Below, one piece after another: positions 2,283 to 52,781 of a stretch of DNA of 64,000 bases. The notes under the pieces were generated by a model, which was not told where the DNA came from, searched no databases, and worked only from the letters and a program-made list of their open reading frames with translations. The position numbers were made by a program, and so were the translations under genes. The stretch lies in the NCBI GenBank assembly GCA_944324465.1, contig CALUWI010000006.1:62001-126000 (forward strand), in the 5' to 3' direction. Position 1 is the first letter of the stretch. Every line of letters starts with the position of its first letter. The DNA is from an uncultured Mucispirillum sp. (GTDB taxonomy: Bacteria > Chrysiogenota > Deferribacteres > Deferribacterales > Mucispirillaceae).

Positions 2283-2628
2283 GGGGGTGCTCGGTTTCGA
2301 CAGGGGGCCGATATCCTCAAATGCATGTCAAGGCTGTCTGAGCCCTTGTAAAAACTCAGGCAAAAAAGTAAACGCTAACGACGAATTAGCTCTCGCTGCA
2401 TAGTGTCAGCGACGCTCTTATGGACTGTCCGCCCATGACGGACTGTAAGGGTGTCAACTAATATGGGCTGGTATCTGCTTTGCTCTGTGGCAGGTATAAG
2501 ACTTTAAGAGCTTTCCCCAAACTTACTTTGTCTGTGGAGGTGGGCGGGGGAGATTTAAGCACAGACTAAGCATGTAGTATTTGTGGACGTAAGCTTTTTG
2601 GACAGGGGTTCGATTCCCCTCACCTCCA
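2283..2628 (+). ncRNA. ssrA: transfer-messenger RNA (tmRNA)
   Basis: The 5' end GGGGGTG (2283-2289) pairs with CACCTCC (2621-2627) to form a 7-bp acceptor stem with one G-U pair, followed by discriminator A at 2628. CCA is not encoded. The conserved GCTCGGTTTCGACAGGGGG opening and the T-arm CAGGGGTTCGATTCCCCT are present. The tag reading frame runs from GGC at 2359 to the TAG at 2401-2403 and encodes GKKVNANDELALAA, ending in the ALAA degron recognised by ClpXP-type proteases. The resume codon GGC, rather than GCA, is assigned from the B. subtilis-like pattern and is inference. The gene lies next to smpB, its protein partner. Confidence 0.97.
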
Positions 2629-2639
2629 TAAATAAAAAT

Positions 2640-21786: not shown

Positions 21787-22173
21787 ATGGATAAATCTGA
21801 AGGAAAAGACTGGTTTGCAAAAACACTTAATAATGTTACAGAAGAAACAGCAAAAGTTTACAAAATTTCTCGTTTAAAATTAGAAATCAATTCTTTTAAT
21901 AAAACTTATAATGAGAAAATGCATAAAATGAGTAAACGCCTGCTTAAACTTATTCAGCAGGGAGAAATAGATGCATCTCTTTTTGAGCCTGAATACAGCT
22001 CTATTGTGCAGATTTCTGAAAAAATAGAAGAAATGGAAACAGAAATAGAAGCTATTAAAGGCAACTTAAAATTCGGCTTTGGTAAAAAGAAATCTAATGA
22101 TGAAGATGAAAATATTGTAGATGTTAAAGTAGAAACTGTTGAAAATGATGAGAAAAAAGAGGATAATAAATAA
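21787..22173 (+). CDS. hypothetical coiled-coil protein
   Basis: A 128-residue soluble protein of unknown function with a very strong ribosome site (AGGAGG), 2 bases after the previous stop. Residues about 20-95 are predicted by eye to be a long amphipathic helix or coiled coil (KISRLKLEINSFNKTYNEKMHKMSKRLLKLIQQ, IVQISEKIEEMETEIEAIKGNL). The C-terminal 35 residues are highly acidic and probably disordered (DEDENIVDVKVETVENDEKKEDNK). Its end overlaps the next gene by 29 bases. It may work with the zinc-ribbon protein beside it, but that is only inferred from position. Confidence 0.75.
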   Translation: MDKSEGKDWFAKTLNNVTEETAKVYKISRLKLEINSFNKTYNEKMHKMSKRLLKLIQQGEIDASLFEPEYSSIVQISEKIEEMETEIEAIKGNLKFGFGKKKSNDEDENIVDVKVETVENDEKKEDNK

Positions 22174-50112: not shown

Positions 50113-51699
50113 TTAATTATTTTCCTTTAATAATCCATAATCGCTGATTTCCTGCTTACTAAAAGGTTTTACTGTAACAGTTTTAAACCTTTTATATATT
50201 ACAAACCCTGCAGGTGTATTTTTAGGCTTTGTAACATATTTTTTATATGTATAATCAACATCTATAAGGTTTTCACTGCCGTATTTTGAATAATATGCTG
50301 TAACTTTTGCAGCAAACTCTATTATTTCATCAGTAAGTTCCACCCCTTCAAGCCTTATAATAATATGAGCAGAAGGAATATTTCTACCGTGAAACCAAAT
50401 ATCATCACTTTGGGCAAACCTGAAAACAAGCTCATGGTTCGATGCAGAGTTTTTACCAGCATACAGCCTGAAACCCTCACCAATATATTCTAAAAATGGC
50501 TTTAACTGCTCTTTTTTCTGTTTTTTATTTTTGTTTTTACTTTCATCATCTAATATTTTCTCAAACTCTGAAAGTTCTTCTTCTGATAAAGTTTCTGCAT
50601 AAAATATCTGTTCTTCAGAAAATAATGCAAGCTGCATAGTATCCTGTAATCTTTCTTCTATCAACGGTATAGATTTTTTTAATCTGGAGGCTTTTTTAAA
50701 AAGTTTATCACTTTTTTTCTGCAAATCTTCCCCATGCTCCACATTATATTCTACTTCACAAATACCATCTTCGCTGTATTTTTCAAAAATATATTTGCCA
50801 GGTACATTTACTTTATAAAGGTTATTTTTTATTAATTCTGCCTCATCAAGTATATCTTGATATTTTTTTGCTATATTTAATTCCTGCTCCAGCTTTTCTG
50901 CTAAATCTAAATATTTATCCCGCTTTAATGTATAAAGTTTTTTAATTTTTCTTGAAATATCTTTTGATGCAGATTTATTTTCCTTTACACAGAAATAATC
51001 ACCTAATTCTTCATAAGTGATTACTTTCACAGCATTTTCAATATAAAACGGTATTACTTTGCCTTTTTCATCTATATAAAATTTATCATCAAGCAGATTA
51101 TTTTGTATAATAGAGCAGCTTTCAGCAAAAGAATATTTCTCCAGCAGCATATCTGCATACTTTGCAGTAACAGGATAAAAACCAGAAAGTTCATTAAATG
51201 ATACTGCTCCATCATATTTTAAAAGGGTATATTTCTTATTTGCTTTTGGCAGGCTGTATTTGCCGCCAGCACCAATATTTCTATCTGCATCAATAGTTCT
51301 TGGCGATAAAGAATATAAAATAGTATCTTCACTAGAAAGCAGAAAAAAGTTTGCATAATTGCCAGCAGGCTCTAAAATCAGCTTATATGTTAACAGCTTT
51401 CCGCTTGCTTTTCTTTTTTTAAGCTCTATAAAACAAGCTCTTTCATAAGAAAATGTATCCATATCTGATACATGAGCACCATGTATTGCTGAAATTGCAC
51501 CGGGACTTTCACCTATAATATTTGTTACTTTTTTTAGAACAGGTGGTGCTGGGGCTGCCCTGTATTCCAGATTAAAAATACCGCCAGCATAAAATGATAA
51601 AAAAACAGAATCATTATTAATAGTTAATGTATTTAGTTTAGAATTTATTAATTTTTCTTTTAATATATTAATAAGTTTATAAAAAGTTAAGCCGTCCAT
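50113..51699 (-). CDS. rqcH: NFACT/RqcH-family ribosome quality control protein
   Basis: The 528-residue protein has the family start MDGLTFYKLINILKEKLINS, a middle coiled-coil part (about residues 250-360), and the C-terminal NFACT-R domain (GEGFRLYAGKNSASNHELVFRFAQSDDIWFHGRNIPSAHIIIRLEG). RqcH recruits alanyl-tRNA to stalled large subunits to add C-terminal tails. Around residue 90, where RqcH carries Asp-Arg, this chain appears to read Glu-Arg (SYERACFIEL), and the region before it is shorter than usual. The function may therefore be partial. GAG lies 9 bases before the ATG at 51699. A promoter (TAGACA at 51752-51757, TAAAAT at 51730-51735) precedes it. Confidence 0.88.
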   Translation of the reverse strand: MDGLTFYKLINILKEKLINSKLNTLTINNDSVFLSFYAGGIFNLEYRAAPAPPVLKKVTNIIGESPGAISAIHGAHVSDMDTFSYERACFIELKKRKASGKLLTYKLILEPAGNYANFFLLSSEDTILYSLSPRTIDADRNIGAGGKYSLPKANKKYTLLKYDGAVSFNELSGFYPVTAKYADMLLEKYSFAESCSIIQNNLLDDKFYIDEKGKVIPFYIENAVKVITYEELGDYFCVKENKSASKDISRKIKKLYTLKRDKYLDLAEKLEQELNIAKKYQDILDEAELIKNNLYKVNVPGKYIFEKYSEDGICEVEYNVEHGEDLQKKSDKLFKKASRLKKSIPLIEERLQDTMQLALFSEEQIFYAETLSEEELSEFEKILDDESKNKNKKQKKEQLKPFLEYIGEGFRLYAGKNSASNHELVFRFAQSDDIWFHGRNIPSAHIIIRLEGVELTDEIIEFAAKVTAYYSKYGSENLIDVDYTYKKYVTKPKNTPAGFVIYKRFKTVTVKPFSKQEISDYGLLKENN

Positions 51700-51808
51700 A
51701 ACATACTCAAGCAATAATTATTTTTATAAATTTTATATATTATAAAAATTTTGTCTATATTTTTTTTTGAACTTTATTAAAATAAACAAGTCTAACTATT
51801 ATAAGAAA

Positions 51809-51930
51809 GATTTTTTCAACCTCCTATAAAAAGATTAAATGGTAATATCCCCAAATTACCATTTAATCCCTCCTAGAACCTAAAAGTAAAATGCCAGCAT
51901 CCCCCAAGTGTTGGCATTTTACTTTTTAAA
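51809..51930 (+). ncRNA. candidate small RNA with two C-rich hairpin loops
   Basis: Hairpin 1: GATTAAATGGTAA (51833-51845) pairs perfectly with 51856-51868 around loop TATCCCCAAA. Hairpin 2: AAAAGTAAAATGCCA (51882-51896) pairs perfectly with 51912-51926 around a loop containing ATCCCCCAAG, and ends in a T run, as in a terminator. CCTCCTA occurs before hairpin 1 (51820-51826) and after it (51869-51875). A possible promoter, TTATTA (51774-51779) with a 17-base gap and TATTAT (51797-51802), would start RNA near 51809. The likely promoters for rqcH and mazG both lie outside this block, so it is not simply the leader of either. C-rich loops and CCUCCU are typical of RNAs that pair with Shine-Dalgarno sites. 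Confidence 0.45.
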
Positions 51931-52001
51931 GGCTTATTTTTAAAAATATATTGTAAATTTTTTCAAGTTAATATATACCCAATATGGTACAGGAGATACA
52001 T

Positions 52002-52781
52002 ATGAATGAATTTGATAGATTAGTAGATATAGTAAAAAAACTTCGTGCCCCTTATGGATGTCCATGGGATAGAAAGCAGACATTATACAGCTTAAAAGAT
52101 GCACTTCTTGAAGAAACATGTGAGCTTATTGATGCTCTTGATAATAAAGATATAGAAAATATTAAAGAAGAACTTGGCGATGTGCTTTTACATGTAGTAT
52201 TTCACTCCCAGACTGCCTGTGAAGATGGACTTTTTAATATAGAAGATGTGGCTCGGGGAATTAATGAAAAATTAATACGAAGACACCCGCATGTTTTTAA
52301 AAATGAACACTATGAAACTGCTGAACAGGTAAAAGAAAGATGGGACGAAATTAAAAAAGAAGAAAATAAAGATAAGAAAGTTCCAGAATCTGTTCTTGAT
52401 AAAGTGCCAAGAAGTCTGCCTTCTTTAATGCAGGCTGAAAAACTGCAGAAAAAAGCATCTAAATACGGATTTGACTGGGATAATCCTGAACAGGTATTTG
52501 AAAAACTGCAGGAAGAATTAAATGAACTCCAAGAAGCATATAAAGAAAAAGATAAAGAGCATATCAGCGAAGAATTAGGCGATGTAATATTTGTGCTTTC
52601 CCGCCTTGCATCTCATTTAGATATAAGTGCCGATGAATCTTTAAGAAAAGTAAACAATAAATTTCGCAGACGCTTTGGTTTTGTAGAAAAAGCATTAAAA
52701 GAAACAGGCAAAACATTAGAAACTGCATCTGTTTTAGAAATGGAAGAAAAATGGCAGGAAGCAAAAAGAAAGGGATTATAA
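52002..52781 (+). CDS. mazG: nucleoside triphosphate pyrophosphohydrolase MazG
   Basis: MazG hydrolyses NTPs to NMP and pyrophosphate, cleaning the nucleotide pool. The 259-residue chain has two MazG domains: the first with FDRLVDIVKKLRAPYGCPWDRKQTLYSLKDALLEETCELIDALD and EELGDVLLHVVFHSQ, the second with KASKYGFDWDNPEQVFEKLQEELNELQEA and EELGDVIFVLSRLASHL. Both carry the E-x2-E-x(12-28)-E-x2-D metal motif. I start at 52002, where AGGAG is 6 bases upstream; an ATG at 51984 lies directly after the promoter (TTGTAA 51951-51956, TATACC 51974-51979) and is the alternative. It is a single-gene unit. Confidence 0.94.
   Translation: MNEFDRLVDIVKKLRAPYGCPWDRKQTLYSLKDALLEETCELIDALDNKDIENIKEELGDVLLHVVFHSQTACEDGLFNIEDVARGINEKLIRRHPHVFKNEHYETAEQVKERWDEIKKEENKDKKVPESVLDKVPRSLPSLMQAEKLQKKASKYGFDWDNPEQVFEKLQEELNELQEAYKEKDKEHISEELGDVIFVLSRLASHLDISADESLRKVNNKFRRRFGFVEKALKETGKTLETASVLEMEEKWQEAKRKGL

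What the first reader, a model, noticed from the sequence alone, without database searches (positions are those of the whole stretch)
51809..51930. Tandem C-rich hairpins that look like an anti-Shine-Dalgarno small RNA
Two perfect stems (13 and 15 bp) carry nearly the same loop motif (ATCCCCAAA and ATCCCCCAAG), joined by two CCTCCTA linkers, and the second ends in a T run. CCUCCU is complementary to the AGGAGG ribosome sites used by genes here, such as exbB, the coiled-coil gene at 21787 and panD. C-rich loops that target ribosome sites are known from Staphylococcus RNAs such as RsaE. The block lies upstream of both likely flanking promoters. On the opposite strand the loops read GGGGA/GGGGGA with AGGAGG linkers, which would instead suit a CsrA-sequestering RNA.
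Basis: partly seen in the sequence, partly recalled or inferred. Interest (0 to 1): 0.75.

Follow-up and report, generated by a model that had tools for sequence, protein, structure and literature searches.

The report
Envelope-stress small RNA that silences porins
A gut bacterium of the genus Mucispirillum appears to carry a small RNA, switched on by its outer-membrane stress sigma factor, that blocks the ribosome-binding site of its porin mRNAs; the same strategy is known from enterobacteria and fusobacteria, and here it turns up in a third phylum.

Summary
Window 51802-51932 (+) is an intergenic ~130-nt sRNA gene: 5' CCUCCU, hairpin with CCCC loop, linker CCCUCCUAGAACCU, terminator hairpin with CCCCC loop. 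It lies at the same site (divergent from the NFACT/RqcH gene) in every genome of three Mucispirillaceae genera that holds that gene. Stems change, even completely, while loops and linker stay. In sister genus g2 the stems pair only as + strand RNA. The minus-strand CsrA-sponge reading fails.

Its promoter is GAAC-N17-GTC, a sigmaE/ECF-type element present in all 12 homologs. The same element precedes rpoE, in an rpoE-rseA-rseB-degP operon 27 kb away.

The linker pairs over 17 contiguous nt with the SD region of a porin mRNA: the best of 809 gene starts tested; the second best is the tandem porin paralog. That porin (or a paralog) is the best site in 7 of 8 species.

Best explanation: a sigmaE-dependent, porin-repressing anti-SD sRNA. 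It works like MicA/RybB and FoxI/FoxJ, with LhrC-like anatomy, in a genome without detectable Hfq. No Rfam family matches. Expression and repression are inferred. Target pairing is weak in one species and unresolved in sister genera.

The parts
51769..51795 (+). sigmaE/ECF-type promoter of the sRNA: -35 GAACTT (51769-51774), N15, -10 GTCTAA (51790-51795), preceded by a T tract
   Evidence: GAAC-N17-GTC at identical spacing in all 12 homologs of three genera and upstream of rpoE in two species; 0.03% of random 100-nt own stretches hold it; matches the sigmaE motifs GGAACTTTT / GTCAAA given in PMC1804206
51802..51932 (+). sRNA gene, about 130 nt; 5' end inferred from the -10 position, 3' end from the terminator
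   Evidence: Fold z -8.7; homologs at the same site; covariation; no Rfam family reaches its cut-off
51820..51825 (+). 5' single-stranded anti-SD motif CCUCCU (mean unpaired probability 0.78)
   Evidence: in most homologs (CCUCU in g2); the two porins rank 5th-6th of 809 gene starts for this segment too
51833..51868 (+). Hairpin 1, 14 bp, loop AUCCCCAA
   Evidence: CCCC loop kept in all 12 homologs although stems differ completely in g2/g3
51869..51885 (+). Linker CCUCCUAGAACCUAAAA, the proposed main seed: 17 contiguous pairs with the porin SD region UUUUAGGUUUUAGGAGG
   Evidence: core CUCCUAG kept in 11 of 12 homologs (diverged in L013 = G006)
51882..51929 (+). Hairpin 2 / intrinsic terminator, loop UCCCCCAAG, T-rich tail
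   Evidence: T-rich tail in all 8 genus members
51730..51757 (-). Divergent sigma70-like promoter TAGACA-16-TAAAAT of the NFACT gene
   Evidence: conserved in the genus
50113..51714 (-). NFACT/RqcH-like gene, the conserved neighbour that marks the site
   Evidence: Pfam NFACT_N and NFACT-R; adjacent in every homologous locus
51984..52781 (+). mazG; annotated start 51984, likely start 52002. Downstream neighbour, not a constant part of the unit
   Evidence: in G004 a porin-like gene on the opposite strand lies between sRNA and mazG, and in G005 the porin-like gene lies beside the sRNA

Best explanation
The block is the gene of a trans-acting sRNA of about 130 nt, transcribed from the + strand by RNA polymerase carrying the RpoE-like ECF sigma factor of this bacterium. 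On envelope stress the sRNA is made. Its unpaired C-rich linker (CCUCCUAGAACCUAAAA), helped by the 5' CCUCCU and the C-rich loops, base-pairs with the Shine-Dalgarno region of the major tandem porin mRNAs and blocks ribosome binding, so porin synthesis falls while DegP is raised. Shown here by sequence: a conserved RNA structure on the + strand, a promoter element shared with rpoE, and exceptional complementarity to porin SDs. Inferred: that it is transcribed, that sigmaE drives it, that pairing represses translation, and that it acts without Hfq.
For: Conserved gene: 8 of 10 genus genomes by BLAST. The two without it, G002 and G009, also lack NFACT. Homologs with replaced stems but the same loops and linker occur in G011 and in G010/G012/G013. 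Structure: 7 pairs with changes on both sides, 93.7% of cells paired, slid controls 40-51%. Strand: 12 G.U against 2 A.C cells; g2 folds at -41 on + against -31/-34 on -. Promoter: GAAC-N17-GTC in 12 of 12 homologs and before rpoE in G000 and G006. rpoE is followed by zf-HC2/RseA_N, MucB_RseB and DegP genes. Target: exact 17-nt complement (G.U allowed) at a porin SD, 0.0015 such sites expected in the genome. It is the best non-self site in 7 of 8 species, the same or a paralogous porin each time. In the own genome the two tandem porins rank 1 and 2 of 809 gene starts (-25.4 and -19.0; mean -8.0, sd 2.6); no shuffled tail of 200 reached -25.4, the best being -22.3. The CCUCCUAGAACC core is mostly unpaired, 0.72.
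Against: No expression data. In G006 the linker has lost CCUCC (CUCUAUAAGAACUUAAAA) and own-porin pairing falls to -15.8, weaker than the G000 sRNA on that porin (-20.3); a C-to-U / G-to-A co-change is present but does not restore energy. In the sister genera no site matches at 0-1 mismatches; porin leaders there share only about 9 nt. The UAAAA end of the seed is paired in hairpin 2 in the free RNA (0.08 unpaired), so full pairing needs opening of A-U pairs. The element GAACT...GTC is not enriched genome-wide, so a broader regulon is not shown. In g2, hairpin 2 has no clear U-tract. The 'porin' has no significant Pfam or PDB match; it is called so from its signal peptide, size, composition and tandem paralogs.
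Confidence: 0.78

Rival explanations
1. A broad anti-SD sRNA (LhrC / alpha-r14 style) that titrates many AGGAGG-type ribosome sites through four redundant C-rich motifs; the porins are only the best of many targets and control need not be sigmaE.
For: Four C-rich unpaired motifs; loops and linker kept across genera; sister genera lack an outstanding porin match; lipoprotein starts also rank high for the linker (-18.8, -16.9).
Against: The linker tail AGAACCUAAAA is conserved in the genus beyond what SD pairing needs and is what singles out the porins; the promoter element is shared with rpoE.
Confidence: 0.15
2. The minus strand is transcribed as a CsrA-sequestering RNA (GGA loops, AGGAGG linkers).
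For: A csrA gene is present; the minus strand reads GGGGA/GGGGGA loops and AGGAGGGA linkers and also folds well.
Against: Loop-1 GGA lost in 5 of 8 genus members; g2 stems break on the minus strand; 12 G.U against 2 A.C cells; the T-run after hairpin 1 on the minus strand occurs only in the own genome.
Confidence: 0.02
3. A cis-acting leader or attenuator of mazG, or merely back-to-back terminators.
For: mazG follows in most species; hairpin 2 is a plausible terminator.
Against: In G004 a porin-like gene on the opposite strand separates the RNA from mazG, and in G005 the porin-like gene lies beside it; conserved loops, linker and own promoter are not needed for a terminator.
Confidence: 0.04

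Closest known systems
FoxI and FoxJ of Fusobacterium nucleatum (PMC11005410)
   Same: sigmaE-dependent sRNAs with a C-rich seed that repress an abundant porin (FomA) in an organism lacking Hfq and ProQ
   Different: Another phylum; no sequence relationship was tested; here at least four C-rich motifs and a 17-nt extended anti-SD linker
MicA and RybB of enterobacteria (PMC1804206)
   Same: sigmaE promoter (-35 GGAACTTTT, -10 GTCAAA), repression of major omp mRNAs, intergenic sRNA gene
   Different: From general knowledge MicA/RybB use Hfq and 5'-end seeds; here no Hfq was detected and the seed is an inter-hairpin C-rich linker
LhrC of Listeria (PMC4132741)
   Same: Anatomy: 111-114 nt, C-rich motifs in the first loop, in the single-stranded linker and in the terminator loop; SD blocking; Hfq dispensable
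   Different: Gram-positive, five copies, LisRK-controlled, target lapB; here single copy with an ECF promoter and a porin target
alpha-r14 family / NfeR1 ('cuckoo' RNA) of alphaproteobacteria (PMC10746234)
   Same: Repeated anti-SD motifs in unpaired regions with stems that diverge freely in sequence
   Different: Three CCUCCUCCC hairpins, nitrogen-stress control by LsrB/NtrC; no Rfam relative was matched here

Membership tests
sigmaE-dependent porin-repressing sRNAs (functional class: MicA, RybB, VrrA, FoxI/FoxJ) | sigmaE-type promoter | tested here: met
   GAAC-N17-GTC in 12 of 12 homologs and at rpoE of two species; activity not tested
sigmaE-dependent porin-repressing sRNAs (functional class: MicA, RybB, VrrA, FoxI/FoxJ) | RpoE/anti-sigma envelope-stress system in the genome | tested here: met
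   rpoE, zf-HC2/RseA_N, MucB_RseB and degP genes in a row
sigmaE-dependent porin-repressing sRNAs (functional class: MicA, RybB, VrrA, FoxI/FoxJ) | Complementarity to translation-start regions of major outer-membrane protein mRNAs | tested here: met
   Found in 7 of 8 species (weak in G006) and in both tandem porins of the own genome; binding not tested
sigmaE-dependent porin-repressing sRNAs (functional class: MicA, RybB, VrrA, FoxI/FoxJ) | Induction by envelope stress and lowering of porin mRNA or protein | not testable with these tools
   Needs experiment
MicA / RybB sequence families (Rfam) | Covariance-model match | tested here: not met
   No Rfam hit at gathering cut-off; weak hits are other families, all below cut-off
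LhrC / alpha-r14 (cuckoo) RNA families | Homology to the known families | tested here: inconclusive
   No Rfam match; architecture alike, but no direct alignment was made
CsrA-sequestering RNA (CsrB/RsmY type) | Conserved GGA in hairpin loops of the transcribed strand | tested here: not met
   Loop-1 GGA absent in 5 of 8 genus members; structure favours the opposite strand

The most novel reading that the evidence does not exclude
A previously undescribed RNA family of the Mucispirillaceae (Deferribacterota): the noncoding arm of a sigmaE response in a third phylum, without detectable Hfq, built on an LhrC-like multi-seed anti-SD scaffold. This would imply that sigmaE-driven porin silencing by C-rich sRNAs arose repeatedly or is ancient.
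Probability: 0.7. Interest if true: 0.75.

Novelty: new member of a known kind. Interest (0 to 1): 0.68.

Why it matters
sigmaE-controlled porin-silencing sRNAs were known from Proteobacteria and, recently, Fusobacteriota. A case in Deferribacterota, in a mucus-dwelling gut genus, with the promoter shared with rpoE and the target readable from sequence, makes the question of whether this circuit is ancient or convergent directly testable. It also gives a concrete regulator of surface composition in a gut organism, in a genome where no Hfq was detected.

Tried and rejected
CsrA sponge on the minus strand: rejected. mazG leader or attenuator: rejected by synteny in G004/G005. sigma70 -10 at TATAAG (51800-51805), my first reading: not kept in G006, g2 and g3, whereas GAAC-N17-GTC is. 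Rfam family: none. Paralogs in the own genome: none with the covariance model. Short target pattern GGTTCTAGGAGGG: not enriched over control, but it pointed to the porin. g2- and g3-specific target patterns: no strong hit. Intermolecular covariation in G006: present at one position but not supported by energies, so not counted. Genome-wide sigmaE motif scan: not enriched over controls; only rpoE and the sRNA combine a T tract, exact spacing and a fitting location.

Full report
What is there. Folded as + strand RNA the block is 8.7 standard deviations more stable than shuffles. No Rfam family reaches its cut-off. The window belongs to the genus Mucispirillum: an exact scan of named genomes with the linker plus stem-2 pattern hit only Mucispirillum records, and the window's assembly (2.42 Mb) clusters with them.

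A conserved gene at a fixed site. BLAST found the block in 8 of the 10 genus genomes including its own, 77-96% identical in the others, always divergent from an NFACT/RqcH-like gene. The two genus genomes without it lack that gene too, so the site may simply be missing from those assemblies. A covariance model run over 51 genomes of the phylum found a weak hit in one sister genus, G011. It proved genuine: it sits at the NFACT site with the same order of parts. The upstream region of NFACT in G010, G012 and G013 (another sister genus, g2) holds it too. In these the stems are completely different in sequence, while AUCCCC in loop 1 and CCCUCCUAGUA in the linker are kept.

Which strand. Within the genus, 7 base pairs changed on both sides and 93.7% of cells are paired, against 40-51% for slid controls. 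There are 12 G.U cells but only 2 A.C cells, the pattern expected if the + RNA is what folds. In g2 the + strand folds into the two hairpins at -41 kcal/mol through G.U pairs, while the minus strand does not (-31 to -34). The loop-1 GGA needed for a CsrA sponge on the minus strand is missing in 5 of 8 genus members. The T-rich tail of hairpin 2 is present on + in all genus members; g2 lacks a clear U-tract.

Promoter. Upstream of the RNA lies GAAC-N17-GTC, at exactly this spacing in all 12 homologs of three genera. This fits the sigmaE motifs reported for micA and rybB, GGAACTTTT and GTCAAA (PMC1804206); two homologs carry GTCAAA itself. I then looked for an RpoE homolog. Its best NCBIfam match is RpoE, below that model's cut-off. 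It is followed by genes for a zf-HC2/RseA_N anti-sigma protein, a MucB/RseB-like protein and DegP. Its own promoter region reads TTTTTTTTGAACTAAATATAATTATCTATGTCAT: the same element at the same spacing, 36-37 nt before the SD and start in two species. Only 0.03% of random 100-nt stretches of this genome contain GAAC-N17-GTC. A genome scan did not show enrichment of the motif in general, so the rest of the regulon is open.

Target. The complement of the linker, with G.U allowed (TTTTRGGTTYTRGGRGG), was searched in eight genus genomes. Leaving out the sRNA gene itself, the best site is the SD region of the same exported 376-383-aa barrel-like protein in six species (G000, G003, G001, G005, G006, G007) and of a paralog in G004. 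In G008 it is a start region cut off by a contig end, with another porin-like gene next. In the own genome all 17 positions pair (UUUUAGGUUUUAGGAGG-UUCA-AUG). A Markov model expects 0.0015 such sites in the genome, and it predicts the number of 3-mismatch sites well (36 expected, about 43 found). Against 809 own gene starts the porin ranks first (-25.4 kcal/mol; mean -8.0, sd 2.6) and its tandem paralog second (-19.0). None of 200 shuffled linker tails reached -25.4, the best being -22.3. The 5' CCUCCU segment, scored separately, ranks the same two porins 5th and 6th.

Weak points. In G006 the linker has lost CCUCC and pairing is weaker (-15.8). The sister genera show no outstanding target. 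The last five seed nucleotides are paired in the free RNA. The porin assignment rests on sequence character, not on a family match. No Hfq gene was found by the profile search while the controls rang, but other chaperones were not examined. Expression was not testable.

Comparison. Functionally it resembles MicA/RybB (PMC1804206) and, closest, FoxI/FoxJ of Fusobacterium: sigmaE-dependent, C-stretch seed, porin repression, no Hfq (PMC11005410). Anatomically it resembles LhrC, with UCCC motifs in loop, linker and terminator loop and Hfq dispensable (PMC4132741), and alpha-r14/NfeR1, with anti-SD motifs in freely diverging stems (PMC10746234). It is not filed in any of these sequence families. 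It meets the sequence-testable features of the functional class 'sigmaE-dependent porin-repressing sRNA'.

Noticed in passing
L038, L057, L058, L061 (upstream of NFACT; genomes G026, G049, G038, G050 of another family of the order): At the same NFACT site another candidate RNA: TTGACA promoter, CCCTCCTCCCTCCT, a short CCTCC/GGAGG hairpin and a strong terminator; a possible independent or very distant anti-SD sRNA.
   Followed up: partly
L274:11744-15159 (-) (G000 contig C6, about 27 kb from the sRNA): rpoE - anti-sigma (zf-HC2/RseA_N) - MucB/RseB-like - DegP operon with an apparently autoregulated GAAC-N17-GTC promoter.
   Followed up: yes
L014 and L015, beside the sRNA: In G004 and G005 a porin-like gene is found next to the sRNA at the NFACT site, where other species have mazG directly.
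   Followed up: no
L226:14412 (+) and L223:1829 (+): TolC-like and efflux-adaptor-like genes carry GAACT...GTCTT about 120-150 nt upstream; possibly further sigmaE targets, but not above the background of the scan.
   Followed up: partly
L116 (G007) and L125 (G005): A FliL-like gene start has 15 of 17 matches to the sRNA linker complement (TATTTGGTTTTAGGAGG), second-best or near-best site in these genomes.
   Followed up: no
window 2283-2631 (+): tmRNA gene, the only Rfam match of the window.
   Followed up: no
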